The notes under the pieces are model-generated. The model did no database searches and was not told where the DNA came from. It saw nothing but the letters and a program-made list of their open reading frames with translations. Position numbers and translations under genes: made by a program. DNA of 64,000 bases, taken from the NCBI RefSeq assembly GCF_964355755.1, contig NC_092680.1, positions 21,863,001-21,927,000 on the forward strand, given 5' to 3'. Each line of letters opens with the position of its first letter. The stretch's first letter is position 1. Positions 18,176 to 55,916 of this stretch are shown here, piece by piece. This DNA comes from Antedon mediterranea. Its lineage: Eukaryota; Echinodermata; Crinoidea; Comatulida; Antedonidae.

Positions 18176-19865
18176 TTAATGTTTAAAGGATCTAAATTGT
18201 ACATTTATGCCGGTAGGGGCAAGAGTGCCAAGCTTTACAATTATTCTTTCTTCTATAATTCTACGAGATGTCTCAGAACCATTACATACTTTAACACCAG
18301 AAATAGTAATATCCGAAAGGGAATGCTCATTATTACAAAAATGGGTGGCTACAGGTAATCCGGGAGTCTTTAGTTTAATAGACCTTAAATGTTCTACAAA
18401 CCTATCACCTAACCTGCGTTTAGTTTCACCAATATAAAGCATATTACATTTAGTACACGAAATACAATAAACTAGATTTCTAGTGGTGCACGTAATACGA
18501 TCTGTGATAACATAATTACCAGAAGGTCCTACTATTTGGTTTGAACATGAAACGTAATTACATGTCGAACATCTATTTCTATTACATTTGAATGTTCCAG
18601 TTGATTCATTACCGTACCTTTGTTTTGTAATTTAGATTTAACTAAAGTGTCTTTAATGCTTTGATCACGTCTGTAAGCTATCATGGGTGGTTCTTGAAAA
18701 ATATCTTTTGTCGCGGATTTATCTTCAGTCAAAATTGAAAAGTTATCGCGGACAATGTTAATAACCTTCTTATTCATAGGATGATACGTGAGGACTAGAG
18801 GTATGCGGTCACAAGCATTTGTATTATGTATAGGTTGCAATGTGTCCTCGTGCGTTAACTGGCAAACTTTTCTTAGAGATTTCACAGTAGTATCAGATGG
18901 ATATTCGCGTGCATTGAAAAAATCGATCATCTCAGATGCTTTGATGTTAAAGTCATCATCATCGCTACATAAACGTCGAAGTCTAACAAGTTGCGAATAC
19001 GGTATAGCATTCTTACAAAGCTGGAGGATGCGAAGAGTTGTAATTTAGATAAGTGTGCGCGTCAGTATCTTTGTAGTGGACGGATGTAGAAAGACCAGGT
19101 TTATCAATAGATAAACTAATATCAAGGAAAGGCACACACTTGTCAGAAATTTCATGAGTAGGCCTAAACTTTATAGCAGGATGAAAATTGTTCACAAAGT
19201 TAATGAACTCATTAAGTTCATCTAAAGTTCCCGACATAACACCAACACAATCATCAATATACCGTTTGAATAAATCTGGTTTCTTCCCCTTATAATCTCG
19301 TAACACATTCTGCTCAAAATACCCCATAAAGAGGCAAGCAAAGTTAGGTCCCATTTTTGTACCCATGCTTATCCCAGAAACTTGCCGAAAAAACTTTCCA
19401 TTGAAGTTGAAGGCTGTAGTATTAAGTACAAGTTCAGCGAGACGTAGTATTGTCGATGCGGGATATTTAATTGAATTATCTAGTTCAATAAAATGTCTCA
19501 TTGCGCTAAGTCCATCTTGAATAGGAATTGATGTGTATAAGGCCGTAACATTCATTGTAAAAAGATAAGCACTCTCAGATGAAAATGTATAATCTTTAAA
19601 CAAAACTACAGCTTCTTTGCTATCTTTGATGTGGGTTGGCAGATTTTGTACAATTGGCTTCAAGATTCCATCCAAGAACTCGCTAATAACAACTGTAGGC
19701 GCGTTACAAGCGGAAACAATAGGTCTACCAGGACTGTTAGTCTTGTGTATTTTAGGTAACATGTAAAAGCTAGGACAAGTGGCGTCAGAATTAATCAATA
19801 TATGGGCTGTAGAAGGAAGCTCTTTCTTCTTAATCATACTATTTACAGTCTTCTTAACAATACCA
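18176..19865 (-). pseudogene. Broken reverse transcriptase/GIY-YIG gene of Penelope-like copy 1
   Basis: Three reading-frame pieces cover the C-terminal two thirds of the element's protein: RT fingers/palm (19013-19865), a thumb/linker segment (18532-18930) and the GIY-YIG nuclease (18176-18442). The middle piece keeps CDRIPLVLTYHPMNKKVI; the nuclease piece keeps YIGET, R and H positions of the family. The frame breaks listed for the element separate the pieces, and the N-terminal third is absent because the copy is 5'-truncated. It cannot make an intact protein. Confidence 0.85.
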
Positions 19866-19962
19866 GTATATGTTATGTATATAGTATAATATGTTATGTA
19901 TATAGTATATGTTATGTATATAGTATATGTTATGTATATAGTATATGTTATGTATATAGTAT
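19866..19962. repeat. 18-bp minisatellite (right fragment)
   Basis: Five to six copies of TATGTTATGTATATAGTA continue the array interrupted by the Penelope-like element. Further patches are at 20108-20143 and 20456-20622. Confidence 0.9.
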
Positions 19963-20143
19963 ACAAATAATGAATGTTTATGAGTGCAATGGTACAAATA
20001 ATGGCACGAGGTGAATGATGAAAGGTTATATCAACGAGGCAAAGCCGAGTTGATATAACCTTTCATCATTCACCAAGTGCCATTATTTGTACCATTACAC
20101 GAATACAATGTTATGTATATAGTATATGTTGTGTATATAGTAT
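19963..20143. mobile_element. Hairpin MITE, copy A, with minisatellite tail
   Basis: A near-perfect palindrome: ACAAATAATGAATGTTTATG ... GTTATATCAA-CGAGGCAAAGCCGAG-TTGATATAAC ... back towards CATTATTTGT. In this copy the last ~35 bp of the right arm are replaced by two 18-bp minisatellite units. Copy B follows 181 bp later, so MITE plus minisatellite were duplicated as one unit. Confidence 0.8.
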
Positions 20144-33323: not shown

Positions 33324-34905
33324 AATTGCTTGCTTCAAAAATTTTTCTTATGGTTTTGCACATTGTACATGAGTGATTTTTGGTACTCAAAATGAGCTCA
33401 TTACTCACCTTACAATCGGTATTGAGTACCCTGACAGTAGGGTAACATTGATTTATGGCAACAACTTGTTTTAATGGCTTCAGTTTGATAAACTACAAAA
33501 AATACATACTGTAAAATTATTGCTTCTTACTACTTGGCATTGCAGATTCAAGGACTAACTAGTCTTGTGATCCTAAATTGATTTTTATTTTAATTTCATG
33601 TTTATTATTTTCATTATTTTGCAAATAAATGATATATAAATTCTACTGCTATCCTATCAGAGTTCTGTACCTACTGTTTAGTGTGTCGTTTGACCTCATA
33701 GATAAAACCGAATGATTGTCTTGTAAAAATAATTACTGTAGTCTGGTAATTTTAATAGAAAAGTTCTTATTAAGATAATTGCTTAAGTTGTTATTAAGAT
33801 ACCATCAAAGTTTGTTTAAGAATGAACTTAGTATCCTGTGTGTATAATGCTTGAATTCAGTTTGTAATATCATGTCTGTATTTTTACCACCTGCAACATT
33901 TTTACATGTTGAATTTTTTGACATTTGTAATTTAATTATTTCATGTTGATTGATTTTTATTATTTTACAGGTATTTATTTTTGTTATTACGTATTTTATG
34001 GTATCAAAAACAAAACAAAAACAGGACCGATGCAGCTGTAACACACACACACACACAACATATTATGTAATTAACAATTCAAGTAATGTACCATCTAAGT
34101 ACTGTACATTGTTCTTAATAATTTAAACATCTTACAGTACCACCTAAATATTTTAAAAACTATCTAAAAAAGAAACAAAAATCCACACTTTCTGTATAGA
34201 TCACTATTTAGACTTTCTTGTTATATTTAACATTTTTGTCTCCACATGTGATAAGTTCTGCTATTTTATTTTTAACAAATAATAGATATATTTAGTTTTC
34301 TTCAAGATTGATGTGTTTGTAGTTTTTAGTGATGAGTGATGTCAAATCATTAAACCTACACATTTCTATTCATTTTTATAGAGAGAAAGCTGACACATAA
34401 TTTTCATTTAGATTTTTTTAAATTTATAACATGTCTGTAATAACTAGAAATTCAGCTATAGAGGTGTACAGGTAGTTTTTTTAATCTTGTTACTTAATTA
34501 ACAAGTAAATTAAGGCTAAGCAAAACTAGTGTCTCATCGTGAACACAAAATCCATTTCACATGCGTATTGTCTTTCAGTGTTACTGACGATGGATATGGA
34601 GTAGATGAGTTGATAAGATGTAAAAAATGAAAGAAAAGACCAATTCAGGCAAAAGTGACAGTTTAACTCATCACTGAGTGTTCTGAGCGGAAAAATACTT
34701 ATTTATAATTCTAATTAGCATCATTTCTCTTTCTTGGCAACTCACAGAAATGCACAGATTGACAATTAAAAAAAATAATAATTGAAATGAAAATGACAAA
34801 TTATTAATCTCTATTAGGATTATTCTGTTTACAATTAAAACAAATTGTTTCCTGTTTTAGATAAATTGAGATAAAATATCAATTGTTGTTAATGTTTGTT
34901 TTCAG
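33324..34905. other. Presumed intronic AT-rich sequence before first coding exon of PR-PLAG
   Basis: No exon recognised. Contains a short CA/TG microsatellite at about 34040-34057. The stretch ends in the acceptor TTGTTTTCAG at 34905. Confidence 0.35.
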
Positions 34906-34933
34906 ACGGATTTATACTGGCTTGTAGTAGGCA

Positions 34934-37900
34934 ATGGCCAAAGATCCCTTGTGTAAGTACATACTTGATTTATTTAAAATTACATCATATTCATACATAA
35001 CATTTTCAGTATTCAATTTTTTGTTCAGATGATAGGGTTTTACCCGATTTTATTTATGCGAACATAGTACAGTAGTAGCATACTGTAAATTATTTTTTAG
35101 TTGTCACTTTATTTTTTTAAAGTGAAGTCAATAGAAACATTTTTCTTAGTTTTGAGAGTGACGTAAAATACAGCAAGTTGTTTAGTTTTGAGAGTGACGT
35201 AAAATACAGCAAGTTGTTTAGTTTTGAGAATGACGTAAACTAAAATACAGCAAGTTGCTTGATTAAAACTGTTAAATACCATTTTGATAATTTTTACAGT
35301 TACTTACAGTAGGCATGTTGACACAGATGCAGTTAAAGTATGTCATATTATTGTGCAAAAGTGATAGCAAAGTAAAATTGTGAACTGCAGAGCAAAACTT
35401 TATTGGTACAGTGCAACTTTCGGTCCTTAACAAACATTGTGTTACCATCATAAGAATTGTTTTAAATGGATATACTGTAGTACGAATGAAAACGTTAAAA
35501 TGGTTCACTCAACCGGTTTCTTTTATTCGGTTGCAGAATGGAAGATACAAAGACATAAAATTTGACAAAGTTGTACGTTAACACAGTGTAACTTCATGGT
35601 GTGAACAGGGTCTTAGACAATTGTTAGATAGATTTTAGTTGTTTTTTAACAGGGTGTGAAGAATGTGGAAAGAGTCATATAGGGGATTGTCCAGTTCATG
35701 GTTCGTTAACTAGAGTGAGAGATAAAGTAATACCGTCTCACGCTAGACTCACACTACCACATCACATGGTTTTAAAAGAGTTGGAACTTAGAACTGGAAA
35801 CCAACAAAGTAAGTATCACATTTATTTATACAAAGTAAGTCTTACATTTATTTATACTGTATAGTCCAAATGATGTGCTGCCTTGTGTAACCCAAACAGT
35901 TTGAAGGTTTTGACAGCAATATGCTACTGTACATCATATCATAATTAGATATTACATGTAGTAACATACATTATCAGTCATTAATGAGGCAAACAACATT
36001 ATTCCTGAATCATACACAATTATTTTATACCAGCAACATCATACAAAGAAAGAAGTACAGTTTGCAATGTCTTGTTATAGCTAGCATGATCCTGGTAGTA
36101 ACTGTAAAGGATAGTACTGACTTGTGTAAGTTCACTATCAACCCAAATAGTTTAAAGATGTTTAAAGCAACACACTATAGTATCATTATCATGATTAGAT
36201 AATATTAATATTTAATGTAAGTACTAATATTTGTCATTAAGAGGCAAACAACACCCACGCAATTAATAACAGCAACATGATATGAAAGAACTACAATGTT
36301 TTTTATTAATACAGCAGCTAGCATGTTATTAACTGTAAAGTAATATAGTAAATATAATATAAATATTTTTAATAAGTGTTAAATACAAAATTTACAAATA
36401 TACATACAGAAGGAGAGCAGAAAACTAAGGTAGAAGTTCCTGTGTTTTTACCGGGGTCATGCCCAGTTGAAGGGTGTTTTGACCAGTTGAAGAGTGTTTT
36501 GGCCAGTTATAGGGTCATGTCCGGGTCAGTTAAAGAGTATTTTGGGAAGTTTTCTATCCAATATTCCCATAAAGCTTGCATACAGTTATTATGTATAACA
36601 TTGTGTAAGTGATTGTAACTCACCACTAGTTTTGTCTTTGGTCAAATATGAAGAGTGAAATAATTTGGATCGTGAAACTTTGTGTTAAACACAACTTTGC
36701 AATAAAATACCCAATGTACAGAGTTTTGATTTAAACCTGTACAGTGCCAACTACAGCATTTGTAGTCTTTATTTTTGCCAGGTTTCGTGTAGACATATAG
36801 GCAGCATGCAATGATAATATAATACTTGAATCTAAATGAGTAATCACAATTTATTTAAATTATCCTTTGCCTATTTCCAATGTTTTGTTTCATTATCAAC
36901 GTTGGCTGGATTCCGACCTATGTTCACCGTGCAACGATACAGAACGCGCACCAAGGCTATTTTATTTATCGTTATCGTGATTATTGTTGATTTATTTGTT
37001 GTAATCTATATTTGTGTTTTAATTAATGTATTAATGTACCACTTACAGATAGTACTGTGACCCATCAGTTAGTACTGTGACCCATCAGTTACTACTGTGA
37101 CCCATCAGTTAGTACTGTGACCCATCAGTTAGTACTGTGACCCATCAGTTAGTACTGTGACCCATCAGTTAGTACTGTGACCCATCAGTTAGTTTTTAAC
37201 AATAAACAGAAATGTAAAGAAATTCTAAAGCACCTGGTTGTGTACTGATAAATGATAAAGATGACGAAATCTGTGAGAATGAGTAAAAACTATCCAAACC
37301 TTTTTAATAACAAATTTTTTCTAATCCGTAAATTACTAATTTTCATTTAGATGATGTTTTTTGGGTTTATTTTGAGCCCTTTTTTCAATGACAAAAGAGC
37401 TGTAGAGACTCATTGATGTTGACTTTTGGTACCTACCTATATTACATTATATAACATATTTCATAGAATCACAGTTTTTTTTAAATAAAATAACTATTTT
37501 GAATAAAATGGTTTAGCTTTTGCTAAATAAAAGGTTTTGTTTAATGTTTTATCGCATAAATGACAGACTTGTTTAATAAAAAATGTCACAGAATTTTAGA
37601 AATTTACCAAAATTCTACTAATTGTGATCTATTCATCTTAAAGAATTAGCGCCTTTTAAAGAGAATATTGTCAGTTGGTTTTTTTGTTAATTAAACATAT
37701 TTTTACTTGATTGTATCAGATTGCTAGAATTGAGACACATTTGAAAATTACTACGGTAAACCATATTAAACATTTTATTGATAATAATTGAAAAGTATTT
37801 CCATTTAGGAAATCGCTAATAACACATTAATTTAAAACTTGATTGATGTTTGGAAATTTGCCAAGATACAAAAAACCCTCAAACAATAGATTTATTTGTA

Positions 37901-40900
37901 AGATTAAGAAATAAAATTTCTCTATCTATTATACAAATCTGTAACAAAAATTGAAATTAATTTTCATAATTATGACAAAATTGATGTCTTCATTTCAAAT
38001 TAGTAAAAGTTGTAAAATATTAACAAATTTCGCATTTCTTAGAGCTGTTTTCTGTCTACAGTATCTCTGTAGTATTTATTACAATCACAAGTATGTAACA
38101 AACAGTACAATATATCCTACGTGTTGGAAACCTAAAATGAAAAATGTTGCAACCCTTTCATCCATTTTAAGACTTGTGTTTTAGTTTGTGCCCAATCCTA
38201 GCTCAACCAAGTTTAGCACCATAAATTAACATGTGGTTGCTAGTTTTGTGCCTTTTATTTATGTCACTATACATCCCACACAGCTTGAGATTGATGGACA
38301 CCTTTAATTGTGTTTTATACTTAAACTAAAATACTTGTAATCTGGTTGAATGGTGAACGATAACCCAAAGTTTGTTAGTTACAAGTAGATTTTAACAATT
38401 GTCAATTGGTTTGATTTCAAACAAAACAAAGTATATTACATGTATATATTTATTTATCCCAAGTCCCAGCTAACAGTCATAAGATTTGAACCAGGATTGT
38501 ATGACTAAAGGTTCAGCATCTCACATATTAATTTATATAAAGTTTTTATAGAGTAGTTTGATGTGTTACTCATCTGACTATATATAGATAATTTGAACGT
38601 CGTCGTACAGTTTGTCCCAAGTCCTGGCTAACGCGTCATCGTAGCTTGTGTCATAACGTGCCATTCTCTTATCACATGGGGTGTCACATGTAGAATTAAA
38701 AGGTCTACTGATGAGTAAAAATTACAAATATTTTATTAATTGTAAAATATCTGTAATTACTGTCCATAACTGGGAATTTATTAGCGTTATTATAAATTGA
38801 TTACAATAATCTTTTTCTGAAAACAACAAATAAGTGTAACGTTATTGTTATTTATATAATGAATAACTTTACATTGTATGATCTTAATTTTTTTGGTCAG
38901 GTATAATTCATTTTTCTTTTGAGTCGTGGTACTTTTGGCTATTTCTTGCCTACCTAGTAGTTTACCTCTCTCTGAAGTAAGAATAATTGTGAAAAGAAGA
39001 AATTCCATTGAGCACCCCTATTGGATAATGTTATCATCCGTGTACTGGGGCTCAAGTGGGCGCCATCCCACCTTGTAGTAGTAGTAGTAGTTAGTATCAT
39101 CATTTCTTTTCGTAACGCCTTATAATTTTGTTTATACCTTTTTTCTTTTAATTTATATTGTTTTATTTTATATCAATTTATCAAATGATCCATTTCCATA
39201 TTTATTTGAATAGAATTGTAATATCTTGCATAATTAATTCATATAAACAAATGGTTTATATCTGACAGGCATCAGCTGGTAACCTTCACAACCATCAAGG
39301 TTGTCAAGTGTGAACTTGACCTTCCAACAGAAAGGTCAAGTTAAGTAGAAGGGATGACTATAGGTTCAATATCTAATATATAATTACAGTATTTATAATA
39401 TAATATCCTTTTTTTTCATCTACACTGATGATTATAAATAACAGTAACACATTGATTAATGTTTATGATGAATACTATACTGTTGCTGGTGTTGTTGTAC
39501 AAAGTGCTGGTGTCTTTTAGTCTCCTCACTTCTTGCTTAATACTAATAATATGATGACTTATAGTAGTATTATCAAATACCTATTTTGTATACCACTACC
39601 AGTATATCATATTATACTGGTATATTATATTTATTTTTATATACCTGAGTGTGAGTGATTTATAAATAAAAAAAAAAATTCTTCTTGCCAGTTGTAATGA
39701 TTAAAGGTAACAATAAAATATCAAACACTGTGTACAGTATGTTTCTACAAAACTTCATTACAGATCTTGGAGCATCTTGGTGTTTTACAGGAATTTACCT
39801 TAAAACCTAACTTACCTTTTCCTTGAGTGACACAATTCTTAAGTGGCACTTGTAAGCAATTACCATGTCTCCAGTTTTTATTAACTGCAATCAAATTGTA
39901 CAGTGATCATAGCATTAATTTAACATGTTTCGAGTGATCTAAAAAAAACTGTCAACTAAATTTTACAAAAGATTATAGAATTCGTTTTGGAATTTATTTG
40001 ACAGGTCCTGTTTTTAAATTATGTAACAGATCTAACTTGAATAAATTATAAACGTTTTACAAACTGTTTTCTGTTCTTTTACCCTATCTAGAGCCAGGGA
40101 GAAATTGCAATTGTAAACTCTCGCGACTATAGAGAGTGGGATTTCTGATATAAAATAGTAGTTCATTGTTTATTGAAGATGATTTATGTATTTACAGTAT
40201 AATAAACAATCTGTTTTTGTTTTGTCATTTCCAACAGTCCTTGGTGTTTTTGCCCGGAAGCTAATACAACGTCGAACTCAGTTTGGTCCCTTCATAGCAC
40301 CCAGATCTCTGACAAAGGTGGAAACAAACAACAATGATACTCACAGACCTTCTTTTAAGGTAGGAATATTGTCCCCCTGAAAAAAATAATTTTTGTTGTT
40401 GAATATACCATTTTAATGTCACATAATACAGTAGTTATCCACTTTGACCAAAAGTTGGATAAAAAAAAAATGTACACAAAAAAAATGTAATTTAAAGCAA
40501 AAAATAGTCAAATTGACTGGAAGTCAATGGGGTTTTGGTTGAATTTAACAGTTTATTTTGTCTTTTCATTTATTTTTTACATTTTTTATGAAAACTGAAA
40601 AATGGCATATTCAAAGACTAATTTTTTTTAAACTTTTTATGTTTTTGGGGGACAATACATCTTTAATAAATCTTATCTTATTATAAAACATGAGACAGAA
40701 CAATCAAACATTGCTGATGCCTATTCTATGCATCAGAGTGACATCTCTGGCGCTTAACAATAGAGGCGTGATTAAGCATGTGTGCTCATCTCTATCTTTA
40801 AGTTCATTGTTCTAGTCCCTGGATTTTTTTTTCTATGTCATCTATAAGTTGACACTTAGAATGGCATAATAATATTCTGGAGGTGTTGAGAAGTTTATTA

Positions 40901-43900
40901 AAATAAGCACATCTTTACTACTTAACTCATCATTATCTTTAGTTACGTTAATAATGAGTATTGCCTCTCATGATCTGTGAGAATGTTTACTGCGACTGCA
41001 TTTGCAAACGTATGTGGTATGGTTGCAATGAAAATGGCCAGATATCAGATGTCAAAAAATACAATTAAAATATGCAAATTTAACAAGGATTTTTCAACTA
41101 TATATTTAAGATGTAGATCTCCCAACATCCTCCCTAGCTTATTATTTCATAATATTAATTCATATTTGTCAGATTTTTCAAAATAATATGCAGCAGTCGA
41201 TCCTTGACACTAGTAGTGAGGATGTGTGTAATTGGATGATGTTTGTAAGACCTGCAGAAGAATATTTTGAACAGAATGTAGTAGCGTATCAGTGGAACAA
41301 TGACGTTTACTTTACGACATCAAAGGTAAGAATTAAGAATCGCAGGAAAATACTTTAAACAGAATGTAGTTGCTTACTAATAAAATAGTGATGTTTTCTT
41401 TACGACATCAAAGGTAAGTCTACGTTCTTTGTAAGAATCGCAGGAGAATACTTTAAACAGAATGTAGTTGCTTAAATCAATAAAATAATAATGTTTATTT
41501 GACGACATCAGGTACAGTAAGTCTGTTAGGCCTACCTTCAGATGAATATTCTTAACAGAATTTTGTTGCTTATTATCATTTTATTGCTAGTACAGTAACT
41601 GTTAAGCTGTATGTCCGTTATGGGCATGTGTGTGGTATACTAAAGCATATCAGTCCAATAATGTACTCATTTACAGTAGTATATTCAATTATTATTTGTG
41701 TTTTGTTTTCAGGCAATTCCACCGCACACAGAATTAAAGGTCTGGTATGCGGCAGAGTACTCCAAAAATATGCAGACAAAACTATTATACAACCCTTTAA
41801 GTACAACCAAAACAGGTAAGGATTACTGATAAGTATTAATTAGATAATTTATTTCATTACTTTACTCATTGTGTTCATCCCTTCATTCAATCTCTCTCTT
41901 ATTAGTTAATTTATTCACTATTTCATTACTTCATTTATTAGTTACTGTAATTCCTTCATTCATATGTTAATTCATCCTTCACTTTTTTAGTCAACCATTC
42001 ATTCCTTCATTCATATGTTAATTCATCCTTCACTTTTTTAGTCAACCATTCATTCCTTCATTCATATGTTAATTCATCCTTCACTTTTTTAGTCAACCAT
42101 TCATTCCTTCATTCATATGTTGATATTCCTTCACTTTTTTAGTCAACCATTCATTCCTTCATTCATATGTTGATTCATCCTTCACTTTTTTAGTCAACCA
42201 TTCATTCCTTCATTCATATGTTAATTCATCCTTCACTTTTTTAGTCAACCATTCATTCCTTCATTCATATGTTAATTCATCCTTCACTTTTTTAGTCAAC
42301 CATTCATTCCTTCATTCATATGTTAATTCATCCTTCACTTTTTTAGTCAACCATTCATTCCTTCATTCATATGTTGATTCATCCTTCACTTTTTTAGTCA
42401 ACCATTCATTCCTTCATTCATATGTTAATTCATCCTTCACTTTTTTAGTCAACCATTCATTCCTTCATTCATATGTTGATTCATCCTTCACTTTTTTAGT
42501 CAACCATTCATTCCTTCATTCATATGTTAATTCATCCTTCACTTTTTTAGTCAACCATTCATTCCTTCATTCATATGTTGATATTCCTTCACTTTTTTAG
42601 TCAACCATTCATTCCTTCATTCATATGTTGATTCATCCTTCACTTTTTTAGTCAACCATTCATTCCTTCATTCATATGTTGATTCATCCTTCACTTTTTT
42701 AGTCAACCATTCATTCCTTCATTCATATGTTAATTCATCCTTCACTTTTTTAGTCAACCATTCATTCCTTCATTCATATGTTAATTCATCCTTCACTTTT
42801 TTAGTCAACCATTCATTCCTTAATTCATATGTTAATTCATCCTTCACTTTTTTAGTCAACCATTCATTCCTTAATTCATATGTTGATTCATCCTTCACTT
42901 TTTTAGTCAACCATTCATTCCTTCATTCATATGTTAATTCATCCTTCACTTTTTTAGTCAACCATTCATTCCTTCATTCATATGTTAATTCATCCTTCAC
43001 TTTTTTAGTCAACCATTCATTCCTTAATTCATATGTTGATTCATCCTTCACTTTTTTAGTCAACCATTCAATCCTTCATTCATATGTTGATATTCCTTCC
43101 TGTCGTGAGTCAACCATTCATACCTTCATTCATATGTTGATATTCCTTTCTGTCGTGAGTCAACCATTTACTAATTCATTAATTAAAATTAATTCAAACA
43201 TCATAAAAAGTTAGATGTTTATAATTAGCAATATTTTAAACTGAAAAAAATTTACTATATATCCTCGGGTATAATCCCACTTCAGGTCTAATCCCACCCC
43301 TTACTTTATGTTTGATTTCACAAACAGGATAGAGCCCAGTATTGACTTTTGGTCTACAGATGTAGGCCTTTTTTTCAGATGAGGTTTTACCGATCCTACT
43401 TCCTAAAGCCGGCCCAATTTCATGTTCTAGGAAGGTGGGATTATACCAGAGATATTATATGTTGTATATTTTAATAATACATACATATTTGCTTGTTTTG
43501 AAATCTATATACATTACTTTTGGTAAATGAACTAATGCATTATTTGATCCATTTGGTCACTCTTGTAACAACATAGTGTATTGGTGTAACATCACCTAAT
43601 GCATTTGATTTTGTTTTTTTTCAGAATCACCTAATTTTTCTCGACAATCAACGTCTCAGATGGGTGGAAGCCACTTATCAACACCAGAGTATGATTTTAC
43701 TGACCTCAATGAGTTACCTCAAGAACCAGAATTCAAACCTGAAATATCACTATTACAATCTAATTTGAATGTGCACCAGGTACTGTACTTTATCTTTTCC
43801 ATCAAATGTTTTCATTTATTTGATCAAAGAACTTATAACACAAGAATCTCCTGTTTGTCCGAAGCGCGTAACAATTTCGAAAGGCATTGTGGGATAGAAT

Positions 43901-46057
43901 AGAGCTATGGGTGGCGCCATTGTGAGCCATGGAGTAGGGCGCCCGCATCAAATTAGGAAGTCAAAATCATAGAGGGGATCTGCTAATACTCTTAATACTC
44001 TAGGGGGGGTAGAGTAATTGACTGAGGAGTAGGGAGCCCGCATCAAATTAGAAAGTCAAAATCATAGAGGTGATCTGCTAATACTCTAAGGGGGGGGGGG
44101 GGGTTAGAGTAATTGACTTCCTAGTTTGGAGGGGGCGCTGCTCCATGCTGTGAAATGGCGTCGCCCAGTTTGACCTTTTAACCCTGTACATCCGATACTG
44201 TGTTTTGAATGCAAATTGAAGAACAGGAGATTCTTGTGTTATAAGTTCTTTGATTTGATACAATCACCAATTTCAGTGGTAGAACTTGAAAGTAAACTTA
44301 ATTAAACTTTCTTCACATTATTATTGTTTTAAAGCAAAAAACACAAAGTTGGTGGTCTTCATTTTATGCTTTGTATTATTTGTATGCCATTGGATGAAAT
44401 AAATGTTTGTTGAATTGAATTGAAAGTACAGTTTGACAAGAACTCATTTGATTTCTAAAGTTTTAAACTGTGTTTTCTGTCCCTCTGTTTGTAGGCATCG
44501 GCTAGTTTGCAATCCCCTACACTTTCAGACCCTTGGAAATGTTCAACCTGTAATCGAGGATTTGGAACTTTTTCACTTCTTGAAGTACACACATGTGAAA
44601 CGGCAACAAAGGTTAGACGTGGACGAAAACCAAAGTCAAAGAAATTAATAGACACATCCACGAGTCGAGAAGGACCGCTTACACGTGCAAGCAAACAGAT
44701 TATACTAAAGACGGGTAAAGATAAGTTGATTGGTCGCCATGGCAAAGGACGTAAACACAAGGAACAAGTTACGTACTCGTGTGATCACTGTTCAAAAATT
44801 TTTTTGAGTATGGAGAAATTAAGAACTCACAGTTATACACATTCTGGTGAACGGCCATTTGTTTGCACAAAACCTGATTGTAAAAAAGCATTTATCTCAA
44901 GTTATAAGTTATCACGTCACATGGCAACTCATTCACCTGATAAAATTCATCAATGCCAATATTGCGACAAGAAATTTCACCGTAAAGATCATTTAAAAAA
45001 TCACCTGCAGACACACGACCCGAACAAGGAATCATTTCGATGTGAAAATTGTAGCAAAGTTTATAACACAAAACCAGGCTTCAAAAAGCACATAGCAATG
45101 CATGCTGCAGACGCAGGTGAACTCACTTGTAAAGTTTGCGACAGAGACTTTGATAGTACGGAAATGCTCATAGAACATATTAAGGTGCATTCTGGGAAGA
45201 GTAATGGTGCAAAAGAGAAGAAACATAAATGCGATGAATGTGATCGTAAATTCTACACGCGGAAAGATGTGCGGAGGCACACGGTGGTACATACGGGTCA
45301 GAAGAACTTCCTGTGTCAAACGTGTGGTCAAAGGTTTGGACGTAAAGATCATTTGGTGAGACACACGCGCAAGAGTCACAATGGAGAACAACTTGGGATG
45401 AAGATGGGTGAACATTTAAGAGCAGTTGGCACGGCAACGGTTCATCAGATACTTCAACAGCATCTGGATGACCTTCCTCCGCTAACGATATCAAACTACG
45501 GGTCAAATACAGCATCTTCGTCGCTCGGTCAACCTCCGCTTAACGAGGTTGACCTTATCAAAGTTCCACCCATTCCTCAAGTTAGATCTCACAACCGAAC
45601 GATGACACGACCTCATACAGAAACAAGATTATCACCAAAGATCGGAACGCAGGTGAAAGAAGCTTCTGGGATGGCAATGGAAATGAGCATGATGGAAACG
45701 GATAGAGATAAAGATATGCAAGATTTGTCTGACACTTTGAATCCTAATAGCTATGATCTTGGTCGGTTACTAGGATTTTTACCGACAAACCACCCAATGC
45801 AGCAAGCTGGTAATCCCCCTCACCCGTCACGCGAGCAACTGCCGCCGCCAATGAAACAGTCTCCTAGCACTTTACCTCAGACCTCAACTTATGTAACGCA
45901 GTCGGATCTACCTCATTCACAGCCTATGGCTATTCCTAATCCAGGAATTCAACCACAGACAATCCGATACCCCTCTAATCAAAGTGGTATGAGCCAGGGT
46001 CAGTATAACCATCCAATGATTCAAGGGCTTCCACGCTTTCACCAAGCTTTTCAGTGA
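34934..46057 (+). CDS. PLAG1: PR/SET-domain PLAG-type zinc finger transcription factor (seven coding exons)
   Basis: Coding exons: 34934-34952, 35653-35808, 40238-40359, 41173-41325, 41713-41815, 43625-43779, 44495-46057. All have GT/AG borders and compatible phases (1,1,0,0,1,0), giving 756 residues. The start is the first Met after in-frame TAG codons in exon 1. Residues 7-21 form a zinc knuckle ([17 protein letters not shown]). About 22-182 is a PR/SET domain of PRDM10/PRDM15 type, with [24 protein letters not shown]...VYFTTS and [15 protein letters not shown]. An acidic linker (exon 6) follows, then one C2HC finger (about 252-270), a basic [10 protein letters not shown] stretch (likely NLS) and seven C2H2 fingers (about 330-531) that match PLAG1/PLAGL2 finger by finger ([54 protein letters not shown]). 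The C-terminus LPRFHQAFQ is the PLAG1 terminus. It should be a nuclear DNA-binding regulator. PR-domain methyltransferase activity is not implied. Vertebrate PLAG proteins lack the PR part. Confidence 0.87.
35138..35263. repeat. Three ~40-bp tandem units in PR-PLAG intron 1
   Basis: Units carry TTTTGAGAGTGACGTAAA and ATACAGCAAGTTG. Each has a TGACGTAA word resembling a half CRE/bZIP site; function unknown. Confidence 0.75.
35855..36345. repeat. Diverged ~260-bp tandem duplication in PR-PLAG intron 2
   Basis: Two copies share in order 'cttgtgtaa', 'acccaaa.agtttgaa', 'gaggcaaacaaca', 'cagcaacat' and 'gctagcatg...taactgtaaag'. Old, noncoding. Confidence 0.6.
37049..37192. repeat. 20-bp minisatellite, seven copies, PR-PLAG intron 2
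   Basis: Unit TAGTACTGTGACCCATCAGT, almost identical between copies. Confidence 0.95.
37193..40237. other. PR-PLAG intron 2, remaining part
   Basis: AT-rich intron sequence with no recognised exon. Splicing of exon 2 to exon 3 is in phase without anything from this region. Ends in the acceptor CATTTCCAACAG. Confidence 0.4.
41340..41590. repeat. Decayed partial copies of PR-PLAG exon 4 in the following intron
   Basis: 41340-41415 and 41439-41518 repeat the last ~75 bp of exon 4 and its donor (actttaaacagaatgtagtt ... tttacgacatcaaaggtaag). A third, weaker copy may lie at 41538-41590. The copies contain in-frame stops in the exon's phase, so they are not alternative coding exons. Confidence 0.75.
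41957..43168. repeat. 51-bp minisatellite, about 23 copies, PR-PLAG intron 5
   Basis: Units run TTCATATGTTAATTCATCC, then TTCACTTTTTTAGTCAACC and ATTCATTCC. Variants change TTAAT to TTGAT or lose a few bases; the last two units are more diverged (ctgtcgtgagtcaacc). Confidence 0.97.
43824..44253. mobile_element. MITE in PR-PLAG intron 6
   Basis: Inverted arms TCAAAGAACTTATAACACAA... at 43824 and ...TTGTGTTATAAGTTCTTTGA ending at 44253 pair over about 32 bp, and the flanking TTTGA (43819-43823 and 44254-44258) is a likely 5-bp target duplication. Inside is a tandem pair of about 100 bp ('cgcatcaaattag.aagtcaaaatcatag') and a 13-nt G run near 44091. The element lies 44 bp after the exon 6 donor. 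No coding capacity. Confidence 0.75.
44495..46057 (+). CDS. PLAG1: Terminal exon of PR-PLAG: complete PLAG zinc finger region and C-terminus
   Basis: This 1563-nt exon (acceptor TTTGTAG at 44494, stop TGA 46055-46057) codes 520 residues with no intron. It holds a C2HC finger (CSTC...HTC), a basic NLS-like stretch, then seven C2H2 fingers matching PLAG1/PLAGL2 in order and spacing, including the diagnostic [16 protein letters not shown] in finger 3, the [11 protein letters not shown] start of finger 5 and YTRKDVRRH in finger 6. The following ~230 residues are low complexity (Met/Pro/Gln rich) with two conserved islands: [13 protein letters not shown] and the terminal LPRFHQAFQ. In vertebrates, fingers 3, 6 and 7 bind the GRGGC core plus G-cluster sites; those fingers are well conserved here, so a similar site is expected. 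It has no ATG at its 5' end, which supports it being a 3' exon rather than a separate gene. Confidence 0.93.
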   Translation, partial: ASASLQSPTLSDPWKCSTCNRGFGTFSLLEVHTCETATKVRRGRKPKSKKLIDTSTSREGPLTRASKQIILKTGKDKLIGRHGKGRKHKEQVTYSCDHCSKIFLSMEKLRTHSYTHSGERPFVCTKPDCKKAFISSYKLSRHMATHSPDKIHQCQYCDKKFHRKDHLKNHLQTHDPNKESFRCENCSKVYNTKPGFKKHIAMHAADAGELTCKVCDRDFDSTEMLIEHIKVHSGKSNGAKEKKHKCDECDRKFYTRKDVRRHTVVHTGQKNFLCQTCGQRFGRKDHLVRHTRKSHNGEQLGMKMGEHLRAVGTATVHQILQQHLDDLPPLTISNYGSNTASSSLGQPPLNEVDLIKVPPIPQVRSHNRTMTRPHTETRLSPKIGTQVKEASGMAMEMSMMETDRDKDMQDLSDTLNPNSYDLGRLLGFLPTNHPMQQAGNPPHPSREQLPPPMKQSPSTLPQTSTYVTQSDLPHSQPMAIPNPGIQPQTIRYPSNQSGMSQGQYNHPMIQGLPRFHQAFQ

Positions 46058-47537: not shown

Positions 47538-47739
47538 TTTTAAGTTTGATATACAATAGATCCCCTTTGGGTTGGCCATAGTTTCAGAATGAATACGTCT
47601 TCTGCAGTAGTTTCTTTCATGGGAAATTGTCCCCTTAATAGGGGTGTCCCAAATTAGGGGTGTCCCCATTAATAGGGGTGTCCCCAAAATAAAGGTGTCC
47701 TAAAGGAGGGGCGTTCTACTAATTTAAGTATTATGATAC

Positions 47740-48537
47740 TATATTCAGTTATTTTGATGTTTTATCTCCCAATACTAAGTTCAGTTATTTTGATCTTTTG
47801 TCTCCCATACTATATTCAGTTATTTTGATGTTTTATCTCCCAATACTAAGTTCAGTGATTTTGATCTTTTGTCTCCCAATACTATATTCAGTTATTTTGA
47901 TCTTTTGTCTCCCAATACTATATTCAGTTATTTTGATGTTTTATCTCCCAATACTAAGTTCAGTGATTTTGATCTTTTGTCTCCCAATACTATATTCAGT
48001 TATTTTGATGTTTTATCTCCCAATACTATATTCAGTTATTTTGATCTTTTGTCTCCCAATACTATATTCAGTTATTTTGATGTTTTATCTCCCAATACTA
48101 TATTCAGTTATTTTGATCTTTTGTCTCCCAATACTGTATTCAGTTATTATGATCTTTTGTCTCCCAATACTGTATTCAGTTATTTTGATCTTTTGTCTCC
48201 CAATACTATATTCAGTTATTTTGATCTTTTGTCTCCCAATACTATATTCAGTTATTTTGATGTTTTATCTCCCAACACTGTATTCAGTTATTTTGATCTT
48301 TTGTCTCCCAATACTGTATTCAGTTATTTTGATCTTTTGTCTCCCAATACTATATTCAGTTATTTTGATGTTTTATCTCCCAATACTATATTCAGTTATT
48401 TTGATCTTTTGTCTCCCAATACTATATTCAGTTATTTTGATGTTTTATCTCCCAATACTGTATTCAGTTATTTTGATCTTTTGTCTCCCAATACTGTATT
48501 CAGTTATTTTGATCTTTTGTCTCCCAATACTGTATTC
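47740..48537. repeat. 36-bp minisatellite, about 22 copies
   Basis: Units alternate between TATATTCAGTTATTTTGATC and TTTTGTCTCCCAATAC, with variant GATGTTTTATCTCCC. Because 36 is divisible by three, two frames stay open for about 250 codons (for example repeated SPNTIFSYFDLL). This is repeat translation, not a supported gene. Confidence 0.97.
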
Positions 48538-51276
48538 AAAATTAATACCAAAACTAAACGTGTTCTATGCACTACTTTACTGTATTTAATTTTAGATTTA
48601 ATGGAAATCTGACTCATCTGTGTTTCATATATTGTACTACATAATATGCATTGCCCTTATATACTCTGGATTTAGTTTTTTTCTCATCTTCTACTACCTC
48701 TTAGAGCTGTGCAATTTTTAATACCTAGGTATTTTCAAACTACTTAATCGATAGATTATAGTAGTCTATGTTGTAAATATTATTTTGATATGCAACTGCT
48801 TGCTGTGGTTTTAACTTGATTACTGTTACCTCATTATAACCTGCTCTTCCTCTTCATATTAAATACATTTACTTTTACATTTATTTGATAGTAAATGGTA
48901 TTATACATCCGCCTTTTTCAAGTTAAAAAATAAATGAAACAATACATATAAACTAGGTTTAATGATTTTAATTGGTATAAAACAGATTCCGCACAGTATT
49001 TAATCAAATAATGTTAACAAAATTTTCTGCTGATTTCAATATGTTCAAGACGTAAAGATTATATTCTGTAAAACTCTTCAATCTGCTCCAATTGTGTAGG
49101 TTATGAATACACTAATATATGTGCTATTACAAATAATCAACAAGTTGATATATAGTATGGTACCTCAGTCATTTAGCCCTTGCATGGGCCATTTTACTAT
49201 TTTATGTCATTAATAAAATAGAATCTGACTATTCTCATATTTAACATATTTTAATTGAAACATATAATTCCCATTCAAGATAATTAGATATTTTGAAGAA
49301 AACTTCTAATTTATTTGAAATGGTATTTTTAATATTTGCAATTTAATAACACTTTATTTTGGTAAAACTAATAATTCAGCTTTTCAGTGGAATATGTAAA
49401 TGGTGTTAAATTTAAGAAGCAGTGTGATAAATAAAAGTGTTTAAAAGTGTAATTGTATTTAAAACAATCAGTAATGAATATATTGAATTAATATTAATCT
49501 CTGTGTTATATCACCTAACTTTATTAAATGATAATGCTATATGTCTTTATATTAAACACTAGGATAAATATATCCAAGCATAATAATTGGTGTAATGTTG
49601 AATAAACAAACTGTCAGATTTTAAAATTATTATATATGATTAAAAACTAAACCAATGCTGTACATCATAGAATGTCATTAAACATTATACGGTATTTCTG
49701 AGTATTTACAATATTATTCGTTGCAATTGAACATAGTGGTACAACCAAATATGTAACCCTCCCTCCTCCGCCGCCGGCACCTCCATTATCATTATAAAAC
49801 TGGTTATTAATGAGATTAAGATAATGATGTTAAGACAAGTTAATGATATTACTGTGAAATGAAGATGGTATCATGTGGCTTATCATAATCATTACATTTT
49901 GATTGATTTCCACATTCATGTTATCAAATGTTTATATCAAATGTTACCACCAATTCTTTAGCTTTTTACAATGTTTACAATTACTCTTTGGCTGTTATAC
50001 TGTCTCTTACAACTGTGGATTTAATGTTTAATTAAATTTTTTTAAATTTCTTATTTGCATGTGTATTTACATTTCTATTGTTTTACAATAATATGTATTG
50101 TTATGTTATCATTTATATTTACTAGATACATAGACCTATTGTTATGTTATCATTTGTATTTACTAGAGACATAGACCTATTGTTAATATAGTGTGTGTTT
50201 TATTATTGGTATTATTATATATTCTGTTTAATTACATGACCTCGGCATTGACCTCCGCATATTACAGTGTTTGTTTTGGGTACCCGCTGTAATACAAATT
50301 GTCATATTAATTTTGATATTCACTCTTTTCAAAATATTGAAATTAAGTTGTGTCAAATGATGTATCATGCTTACTACTGGTGGTAACCAGTTAAATTAAA
50401 GTATTTTATTTGACGTTTATTTCTTTTCTCTTAAAATTTAATCTAGCATGCTTTGGATTTACAGACTTTTATTTCTGTATCACAGAACCGTAGCTGGTAT
50501 CACAAATCTGCAGTTGAATTTAAAAAATTGTATTAAGCCACTTCTCATCAAATGTAGTATTAAGCCAGTTCTCATCAAATGTAGTATTAAGAACACTGTT
50601 TCCGGGTGACACACCTTGTGTTCTGCTGGTATACCCTTAATTAATACTACCGTTTCAGATAGAATAACTTTAATGTTTTTATAGTTTGTTTTTTAATTTT
50701 GTTTTTATATTGTATCAGTATTAACAGCTCTATAGTAGTATCTGTGTATTTAGACTATATCATATATTATATATATTTATGAATTTTAAGAATAGCAGGA
50801 AGTATAGTGGTATATCCTTATGTACAGATATATAATAGTATTGTAAATTGAATTATTTTTCTTTAGGTTATATATTAATAATGTACATAATGTACATGAA
50901 ACATAATATTCAATAATTATAGGCATTTCATATTTATAAGTAGTATAAAATACCAGACTGATTGTAATATATCCATTTTTATACATTTTGCCAATATTAT
51001 AAAACAAACTGTAAATCTAGTATTTAATATTTTTTGCATAATTAATTAGCATGAGGTAGTTAGCATGAGATAACAAGATTGAAGTAAAGTATTCATATTT
51101 ACAGATTGTTAGATTTTTTACAATCATTAAAAAAGACCCAGTGTTTAATTTCACACAAATTACACTGTATTGATGCTGATTAGTGGGGATAATTCTTTAT
51201 TAACACTATAGTTGTTTTTACTTGCTTCCAGAAGACAGTAAGCCAAATACTGATAGATAAAAATGCTAATACCTTG
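48538..51276. other. AT-rich intergenic sequence
   Basis: No gene recognised over about 2.7 kb. A 39-bp duplication containing 'catagacctattgtta' lies at 50100-50185. Confidence 0.35.
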
Positions 51277-52985: not shown

Positions 52986-55724
52986 TTAATGTTTAAAGGA
53001 TCTAAATTGTACAGTTATGCCGGTAGGGGCAAGAGTGCCAAGCTTTACAATTATTCTTTCTTCTATAATTCTACGAGATGTCTCAGAACCATTACATACT
53101 TTAACACCAGAAATAGTAATATCTGAAAGGGAATGCTCATTATTACAAAAATGGGTGGCTACAGGTAATCCGGGAGTCTTTAGTTTAATAGACCTTAAAT
53201 GTTCTACAAACCTATCACCTAACCTGCGTTTAGTTTCACCAATATAAAGCATATTACATTTACGGGTACATTTAGTACACGAAATACAATAAACTAGATT
53301 TCTAGTGGTGCACGTAATACGATCTGTGATAACATAATTACCAGAAGGTCCTACTATTTGGTTTGAACATGAAACGTAATTACATGTCGAACATCTATTT
53401 CTATTACATTTGAATGTTCCAGTTGATTCATTACCTTTGTTTTGTAATTTAGATTTAACTAAAGTGTCTTTAATGCTTTGATCACGTCTGTAAGCTATCA
53501 TGGGTGGTTCTTGAAAAATATCTTTTGTAGCGGATTTATTTATCTTCAGTCAAAATTGAAAAGTTATCGCGGACAATGTTAATAACCTTCTTATTCATAG
53601 GATGATACGTGAGGACTAGAGGTATGCGGTCACAAGCATTTGTATTATGTGTAGGTTGTAATGTGTCCTCGTGCGTTAACTGGCAAACTTTTCTTAGAGA
53701 TTTCACAGTAATGTCAGATGGATATTCGCGTGCATTGAAAAAATCGATCATCTCAGATGCTTTGATGTTAAAGTCATCATCATCGCTACATAAACGTCGA
53801 AGTCTAACAAGTTGCGAATACGGTATAGCATTCTTACAAGCTGGAGGATGCGAAGAGTTGTAATTTAGATAAGTGTGCGCGTCAGTATCTTTGTAGTGGA
53901 CGGATGTAGAAAGACCAGGTTTATCAATAGATAAACTAATATCAAGGAAAGGCACACACTTGTCAGAAATTTCATGAGTAAACTTTATAGCAGGATGAAA
54001 ATTGTTCACAAAGTTAATGAACTCATTAAGTTCATCTAAAGTTCCCGACATAACACCAACACAATCATCAATATACCGTTTGAATAAATCTGGTTTCTTT
54101 CCCTTATAATCTCGTAACACATTCTGTTCAAAATACCCCATAAAGAGGCAAGCAAAGTTAGGTCCCATTTTTGTACCCATGCTTATCCCAGAAACTTGCC
54201 GAAAAAACTTCCCATTGAAGTTGAAGGCTGTAGTATTAAGTACAAGTTCAGCGAGACGTAGTATTGTCGATGCGGGATATTTAATTGAATTATCTAGTTC
54301 AATAAAATGTCTCATTGCGCTAAGTCCATCTTGAATAGGAATTGATGTGTATAAGGCCGTAACATCCATTGTAAAAAGATAAGCACTCGCAGATGAAAAT
54401 GTATAATCTTTAAACAAAACTACAGCTTCTTTGCTATCCTTGATGTAGGTTGGCAGATTTTGTACAATTGGCTTCAAGATTCCATCCAAGAACTCGCTAA
54501 TAACAACTGTAGGCGCGTTACAAGCGGAAACAATAGGTCTACCAGGACTGTTAGTCTTGTGTATTTTAGGTAACATGTAAAAGCTAGGACAAGTGGCGTC
54601 AGAATTAATCAATATATGGGCTGTAGAAGGAGCTCTTTCTTCTTAATCATACTATTTACAGTCTTCTTAACAATACCAATATCAGAATCAGTAGGGTCGG
54701 CATCAAGTGGCTGATATACGTCAAGATTAGAAAGTTGTCTTTCTCCCTCTGTAATATATAGGTCCCTTCTCCAAACCACAGTAGCACCACCTTTATCTGC
54801 TCGTTTAATAACGTAGTCATGATTACCTTTAAGTGATCTAATGGCAGCTTGCTCTCCTTTTGACAAATTACAAATATTCTTTGGTTGTTTTAACTTAAGC
54901 TTGTTAATCTCTCGTTTGCAAGTATTGACATACAGATCAAGTTCAGCGAACATACCTTGTGGCAGTGTCCAGCTAGATGGCTTCTTATTCAGCAACTGTA
55001 ATTCATCTTTTGTTGTTACATTTGTCTGATTCTTGCCGTGAAAGTTTGCTTTGAGTCGTAAACGTCTGTAATATTGATCCATGTCTTGTTTAAGCTGGAA
55101 ATCATCAATCTCTTTCCTAATAGGAATAAAAGATAGACCCTTAGAAAGAACAGAGCGTTCTTCATCTTTAAGAGGCAAATCGTCAGGTATAGTCACAACT
55201 AGTTTAGACGTATCAGGGTGTGCTCTCGTTGGTCCTACCTCACCAATGGAATACTCTCTACAAACACGATTAGCTTTAAGTAATTTAGCTTCTGTCAATG
55301 ACTTGTAATACCATTTGTTTAATCCATGGACGATACTTCGTATTTTGTCAAATTCGTAGTTGGTACAAGCTGCTCGTAGGTTGGTCTTATGATGTACCAT
55401 TTGTTCATCATGATACGCAACTTTCTTTAAGTTCATCTGAATGCTCATACGCATAAACCGTCTGGAAACAGCATTGATACTATCAGATATGAACTTCTTA
55501 TCAAAATAAGCAAAGGACGGTGACCAGGTAGATCTAAATGACTTGGGTATGACGTTCCATCTTAGACAAGTGGACAGAAAATAAACATTACTAGAACATC
55601 TTGCCTTACTGAACGTTGAGGTTCCAAAGCAAAAACCAAATGTCTTCACACATGGAGAATACAGGCTTAAGTCGTTGTTGAGAATCCGACGCGCTTGTTG
55701 TAAAACTTGCTTGGAATTGGCCAT
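52986..55724 (-). pseudogene. Penelope-type reverse transcriptase with GIY-YIG endonuclease (two frameshifts)
   Basis: Three consecutive frames make up about 900 residues. 55724-54609 (371 codons, start MANSKQVLQQ) covers the N-terminal domain with the conserved RADKGGATVV. 54612-53536 (358 codons) covers the RT core: ATCPSFYMLPKIHK, GRPIVSACNAP, TMDVTALYTSIP, GTKMGPNFACLFM and the catalytic RYIDDCVGV with its two aspartates. 53501-52986 (171 codons) covers the zinc motif and GIY-YIG nuclease (CNMLYIGETKRRLGDRFVEH). The first break is a single missing base near 54632 relative to copy 1; the second is a 4-nt tandem insertion near 53540. Otherwise the catalytic residues are intact, so decay is very recent. 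The product would reverse-transcribe and insert the element. Confidence 0.92.
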
Positions 55725-55725
55725 A

Positions 55726-55916
55726 CTTGTTATAAAACAAACAGGTATAGCTATATATATATATATATAGCCTATATAGACTAATTTTCACTTCACTCAA
55801 TCAATAACAATAAAACAGATGGTATTAAAAAAATTAAAGAAAGTGCGAATTTCAAATAATACATTTCATAAATATATATATATATATATAGCCTATATAG
55901 ACTAATTTTCACTTCC
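55726..55916. repeat. Duplicated flank right of Penelope-like copy 2
   Basis: 'gcctatatagactaatttt' preceded by (TA)n occurs at 55756-55795 and again at 55870-55916. Together with the flank at 52479 this shows a ~115-bp tandem duplication whose first (TA)n was hit by the element. Confidence 0.7.

What the first reader, a model, noticed from the sequence alone, without database searches (positions are those of the whole stretch)
34934..46057. A PR/SET domain joined to a complete PLAG zinc finger protein
Seen: seven exons with clean GT/AG sites and matching phases link a PRDM10/15-type zinc knuckle and PR domain ([32 protein letters not shown]) to all seven PLAG fingers and the exact PLAG1 terminus LPRFHQAFQ. 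The PLAG exon has no start codon of its own at its 5' end. Known: vertebrate PLAG1, PLAGL1 and PLAGL2 have no PR domain, and PRDM proteins are classified by PR domain plus other zinc fingers. Inference: either PLAG factors descend from a PRDM gene and lost the PR exons in vertebrates, or this lineage gained them. Both would change how the PLAG family is classified.
Basis: partly seen in the sequence, partly recalled or inferred. Interest (0 to 1): 0.93.

Follow-up and report, generated by a model that had tools for sequence, protein, structure and literature searches.

The report
PR domain on a lone PLAG gene
In this invertebrate the only PLAG growth-control gene that was found carries an extra chromatin-type (PR/SET) domain that known vertebrate PLAG proteins lack, which suggests that PLAG genes may be stripped-down members of the PRDM family.

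Summary
Confirmed: seven exons (34934-46057, + strand), GT/AG borders, matching phases, encode 756 residues: zinc knuckle, PR domain (116 bits), a degenerate finger, an AT-hook-like stretch, seven PLAG fingers and the end LPRFHQAFQ. No second PLAG gene was found; the next array is 36% identical (capped search).

New: the PLAG exon itself opens with a PRDM10-like post-PR finger and basic hook. Among 249 other held fingers the best match to that finger is finger 1 of the genome's own PRDM10-like gene. PRDM4-, PRDM10- and PRDM15-like genes exist separately. One PR intron, absent from those three, sits at the same place in two other PRDM genes, which argues against a recent copy.

Against: no transcript and no other animal genome could be searched; the PLAG fingers show no specific link to PRDM10 fingers; PR tree support is moderate (89/85), PRDM4 is not excluded, and one search scores the PRDM4-like gene higher. 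Hox genes suggest an ambulacrarian host. The joined gene is very probably real; whether vertebrates lost the PR domain or this lineage gained it is open.

The parts
34906..34952 (+). exon 1; possible acceptor at 34905, in-frame stop TAG at 34928, ATG at 34934; donor GTAAGT
   Evidence: 5' part read by eye; coding part 34934-34952
35653..35808 (+). exon 2: zinc knuckle [15 protein letters not shown] (35655-35699) and start of PR region
   Evidence: (PF18445 below cut-off)
40238..40359 (+). exon 3: PR domain, GVFARK...RTQFGPF; phase 1 intron before, phase 0 after
41173..41325 (+). exon 4: PR domain core, [12 protein letters not shown]...QNVVAYQ
41713..41815 (+). exon 5: end of PR domain, [12 protein letters not shown]; leaves in phase 1 like the own PRDM4-, PRDM10- and PRDM15-like genes
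43625..43779 (+). exon 6: linker without known domain, bridges phase 1 to phase 0
44495..46057 (+). exon 7: degenerate finger, basic hook, seven PLAG fingers, C-terminal region, stop TGA
44534..44596 (+). post-PR finger [25 protein letters not shown]10 finger-1-like
44618..44644 (+). AT-hook-like basic stretch RGRKPKSKK
   Evidence: compared with KRGRPRK of the PRDM10-like gene
44774..45382 (+). seven C2H2 fingers of PLAG type
46028..46054 (+). C-terminal LPRFHQAFQ (named as the PLAG1 end from memory)

Best explanation
This is one gene for a PRDM-PLAG transcription factor. Shown from sequence: an intact knuckle and PR domain of the PRDM10/PRDM4 branch can be spliced in frame to a large terminal exon that starts with a PRDM10-like finger and basic hook and runs without a break into the seven PLAG fingers and PLAG C-terminus; no other PLAG gene was found in the genome. 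Inferred mechanism: the PLAG fingers bring the protein to GC-rich PLAG sites (the finger stretches [18 protein letters not shown] and FGRKDHL agree with the recalled human PLAG1), and the PR domain acts as an effector, most likely for activation, as the PR end of PRDM10 does in a reporter assay. Inferred history: the PR module is old, not a recent copy of the present PRDM10-like gene.
For: Gene model and phases. PR domain above the Pfam cut-off. One PLAG locus, next hit 36% (150 of 1039 candidates scored). PRDM4-, PRDM10- and PRDM15-like genes elsewhere. PR intron positions shared with PRDM genes; the one at SK|AIPP is shared with C3:2478 (both borders) and C4:2767 (donor seen, acceptor not checked) and is absent from the own PRDM4-, 10- and 15-like genes (read by eye). 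PR exon leaves in phase 1 as in those three. PR tree groups it with PRDM10, 89/85. Exon-7 first finger ranks PRDM10 finger 1 first of 249; 152 of 200,000 shuffles reach the masked score. No C2H2-like pattern between exons 5 and 7 on either strand, so a separate PR gene ending there would have no fingers; 0 of 14 ATG candidates in introns 5-6 and 1 of 143 in all six introns has a good phase-0 donor. PR end plus fingers of PRDM10 activates a reporter (PMC7368010, passages seen).
Against: No RNA evidence. PR tree support is not strong; grouping with PRDM4 is not rejected (AU p 0.148), and in the genome search the PRDM4-like exon scores above the PRDM10-like one (76.4 and 72.5 bits). A genome search with the first finger and hook found only itself; the first fingers of the PRDM15- and PRDM4-like genes rank only 93rd and 28th of 249. 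Vertebrate PLAG proteins lack a PR domain (recalled), and a bivalve survey lists 11 PRDMs, none with seven or eight fingers.
Confidence: 0.82

Rival explanations
1. Lineage-specific fusion: a PRDM10/4-like duplicate (knuckle, PR, first finger, hook) was joined within an exon to a PLAG gene that never had a PR domain before.
For: PLAG fingers show no order-specific match to PRDM10 fingers (best z 0.67 over 8 windows), and the PRDM10 finger pair is only the 54th listed hit, the query itself counted, to the last two PLAG fingers. Known vertebrate PLAGs lack PR (recalled).
Against: The intron at SK|AIPP, absent from the own PRDM4-, 10- and 15-like genes but at the same place in two other PRDM genes, argues for an old PR module; no PR-less PLAG copy was found in this genome.
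Confidence: 0.4
2. Two neighbouring genes wrongly joined: a PR-only gene and a PLAG gene with its own unseen first exon.
For: Poly-A-like words lie in the introns, including ATTAAA at 44301 and AATAAA at 44398 in intron 6; one short ATG exon candidate with a good phase-0 donor lies in intron 2 at 38859-38900; no transcript was seen.
Against: Exon 7 itself carries the PRDM10-like finger and has no ATG before finger 1; introns 5 and 6 hold 0 of 14 ATG candidates with a good phase-0 donor and no C2H2-like pattern; such poly-A words are frequent in these A+T-rich introns.
Confidence: 0.06
3. The joined gene is real, but an internal promoter also gives a short PLAG-only form, so the PR domain is optional. 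Not exclusive with the others.
For: Long introns leave room, and intron 2 holds one 14-codon ATG exon candidate with a good phase-0 donor, 1 of 96 candidates there. A PR-lacking form of another PRDM gene, MEL1S, is in a reference title shown.
Against: No in-frame ATG upstream of the fingers in exon 7; a 14-codon candidate among 143 is no more than chance may give.
Confidence: 0.25

Closest known systems
PLAG family (PLAG1, PLAGL1, PLAGL2)
   Different: Adds knuckle, PR domain, an eighth degenerate finger and a hook; vertebrate PLAGs lack the PR domain (recalled)
PRDM10 (PR/SET domain 10)
   Same: PR domain 45% identical to the own PRDM10-like gene and 41% to the PDB chain of PRDM10; first finger and following basic hook alike; large finger exon
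   Different: PRDM10 has its own long finger array (14 in the own copy; ten in mouse) and a Q-rich end; one PR intron differs; finger arrays not specifically alike
PRDM4
   Same: PR 43% identical to the own PRDM4-like gene; phase 1 exit; best bit score by a hair
   Different: Different finger array; the own copy lacks the SK|AIPP intron

Membership tests
PRDM family | PR domain at the N-terminal side | tested here: met
   PF21549 116 bits against cut-off 27; PRDM4 and PRDM10 best in PDB
PRDM family | C2H2 fingers behind the PR domain | tested here: met
   seven Pfam-called fingers plus a degenerate one
PRDM family | zinc knuckle before PR (part of the family only) | tested here: inconclusive
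   PF18445 20.9 bits at best, cut-off 25.8
PRDM family | histone methyltransferase activity (some members) | not testable with these tools
   needs an assay
PRDM10 orthology group | PR domain nested in a PRDM10 clade | tested here: inconclusive
   89/85, not starred; PRDM4 grouping not rejected; a separate own PRDM10-like gene exists
PRDM10 orthology group | PRDM10 finger array | tested here: not met
   no order-specific match; rank 54
PLAG family | seven PLAG fingers with characteristic linkers | tested here: met
PLAG family | conserved C-terminal end | tested here: met
   LPRFHQAFQ present; the label is recalled
PLAG family | binding to the PLAG consensus site | not testable with these tools
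   inferred from finger residues only

The most novel reading that the evidence does not exclude
PLAG transcription factors are a branch of the PRDM family: the ancestral PLAG carried knuckle, PR, first finger and hook like PRDM10, this animal keeps that state in its only found PLAG gene, and vertebrate PLAG1, PLAGL1 and PLAGL2 lost the PR exons.
Probability: 0.48. Interest if true: 0.8.

Novelty: new variant of a known kind. Interest (0 to 1): 0.66.

Why it matters
PLAG1 and PLAGL1 are growth and tumour genes that are classified apart from PRDM (recalled). If their forebear carried a PR domain, the family needs reclassification, and vertebrate PLAGs would be PRDM proteins that lost an effector domain, a loss that can be tested with existing animal genomes. 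If instead this lineage gained the PR domain, it is a clear case of a regulator acquiring an effector domain with no PR-less copy found in the genome.

Tried and rejected
PLAG fingers as derived PRDM10 fingers: with the last two PLAG fingers as query the PRDM10 pair is the 54th row, the query itself counted (150 of 2635 candidates scored). The order-specific permutation test gives z 0.67 at best for PRDM10 over 8 windows. A PRDM15 window gives z 2.73, p 0.005, but it is the best of 172 windows (some from overlapping loci), so chance is enough. Not claimed.

The first finger and hook as a genome-wide query found only itself, so the PRDM10 link rests on the finger-by-finger comparison. Its set of 250 fingers comes from the loci I held and is rich in PRDM genes and PLAG-like hits, not a sample of the genome.

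Viral contigs: no match to exon 7. The COX1 search for the host found nothing. A bacterial promoter scan of 101 bases is uninformative for an animal gene. No structure prediction was run.

Literature: ten searches; in the listings shown and the passages opened I saw no report of a PR domain on PLAG. The listings were capped. The main PRDM survey (Vervoort 2016) is not held, so prior notice there cannot be excluded.

Rows dropped: the tree used 11 of the 12 own PR places over the Pfam cut-off (C3:7990958 left out as a fragment) and 5 of the 11 PRDM proteins seen in PDB. Several own rows are partial. That the PDB chains are human, save PRDM9, is recalled; the output names no species.

Full report
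Observation. Pfam finds a PR domain at residues 52-171 (116 bits) and seven C2H2 fingers. The closest solved chains to the PR part are PRDM4 and PRDM10, then PRDM1, PRDM9 and PRDM11. Exon 7 is one open frame that begins at its acceptor and has no ATG before residue 106, inside the first PLAG finger. Exon 6 has no known domain but bridges the phases; its codon score is reached by 3 of 83 open non-coding windows. Between exons 5 and 7 no C2H2-like pattern occurs on either strand, and 0 of 14 ATG candidates there has a good phase-0 donor; over all six introns it is 1 of 143, a 14-codon candidate in intron 2.

PLAG identity. In the own genome the next best of 205 matches is 36% identical (150 of 1039 candidates were scored). 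So only one PLAG gene was found, and it is the one with PR exons.

Exon 7 opens with [21 protein letters not shown] and a basic hook, RGRKPKSKK. The own PRDM10-like gene on C8 has WPCFECNRKFRTSDLLQRH and KRGRPRK in the exon behind its PR exons. Among 249 other fingers from the loci held, that PRDM10 finger is the best match to the window's finger, with or without the consensus positions; the first fingers of the PRDM4- and PRDM15-like genes rank 28th and 93rd. 152 of 200,000 shuffles reach the masked score. The reverse comparison ranks the window finger second, behind another PRDM10 finger. The join of PRDM-type and PLAG-type sequence is therefore visible inside one exon, if this finger match is accepted. 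Against it, a genome search with this stretch returned only itself.

PR history. Fifteen rows at twelve places pass the Pfam cut-off in the genome. The PRDM10-like gene is named by its PR domain (105.5 bits to PRDM10, 79.0 to PRDM4). The PRDM4-like gene is named by a narrow margin (91.7 to PRDM4, 90.0 to PRDM10). The PRDM15 name is from finger number and is recalled: no PRDM15 chain is in the list, and the best hit is PRDM11. In a 16-row tree the window PR joins the two PRDM10 rows (89/85, not starred); PRDM4 instead is not rejected (p 0.148). In the genome search the PRDM4-like exon scores slightly above the PRDM10-like one (51% and 48% identity, 76.4 and 72.5 bits). Introns, read by eye: the phase 0 intron in front of IFQNN is at the like place in the PRDM4-, 10- and 15-like genes, C11:1924 and C1:3287, while C4:2767 reads through it; the phase 1 intron before GVF is in the PRDM4- and 10-like genes and C3:2478, two residues off, and not in the PRDM15-like gene; the phase 0 intron at SK|AIPP is in C3:2478 (both borders) and C4:2767 (donor only checked), and the PRDM4-, 10- and 15-like genes read through it. 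The PR exon leaves in phase 1 in all four genes. Retention of an old intron is simpler than independent gain at the same base, so the PR module here is unlikely to be a recent copy of the PRDM10-like gene.

Finger history. The seven PLAG fingers show no order-specific kinship with PRDM10 and no special rank in the genome search. The data do not say whether PLAG fingers arose within a PRDM gene or were joined to one.

Host. Twelve of the 14 homeodomain matches lie in a row on C2 (7.83-8.21 Mb), one of them on the other strand; the posterior ones look like Hox9/10 and three Hox11/13 genes, which suggests an ambulacrarian (the labels are recalled). About eleven large chromosomes are inferred from ten contig lengths seen and the total; the length of C10 was not seen. 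The species is not known.

Mechanism. Mouse PRDM10 uses its fingers for DNA binding, and its PR end together with the fingers activates a reporter (PMC7368010, passages seen). By analogy the window protein should use PLAG fingers for targeting and the PR domain as effector; this is inference.

Literature. Fumasoni 2007 reports 7 putative PRDM orthologs in a sea urchin (PMC2082429, outline and one section seen). A bivalve survey lists 11 PRDMs, none with seven or eight fingers (PMC10451705, passages). In two C2H2 family surveys the word search found no 'PLAG' in the main text (PMC3701560, PMC2889900). The main PRDM survey was not available.

Verdict. A real PRDM-PLAG gene is very likely; the direction of the evolutionary change is undecided.

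Noticed in passing
own genome C8:4021361-4035934 (-), loci L054-L056: PRDM10-like and PRDM15-like genes lie next to each other on one strand, about 6 kb between the exons found, which suggests an old tandem pair.
   Followed up: partly
own genome C1:38035792-38037587, L057/L058: A PRDM9-like PR exon is followed by an exon with eleven near-identical C2H2 fingers (loose pattern count), as in recombination-hotspot PRDM9 genes (the likeness is recalled).
   Followed up: no
window 43823-44254: Intron 6 holds an element with perfect 33-base terminal inverted repeats, MITE-like; a 20-base core of the repeat occurs twice in the window and six times in the loci held, some of which overlap the window.
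   Followed up: partly
window 18179-20062 (-) and 52989-55787 (-): Two copies of a reverse-transcriptase element with a GIY-YIG-like end, Penelope-like by eye.
   Followed up: no
window 41850-43200 and 47723-48612: Two long tandem repeat arrays, the first inside intron 5, with long open frames through the repeats.
   Followed up: no
own genome C8:11175124-11176287 (-), L064: A C2H2 gene whose finger pair is the nearest scored match in the genome to the last two PLAG fingers (54%).
   Followed up: partly
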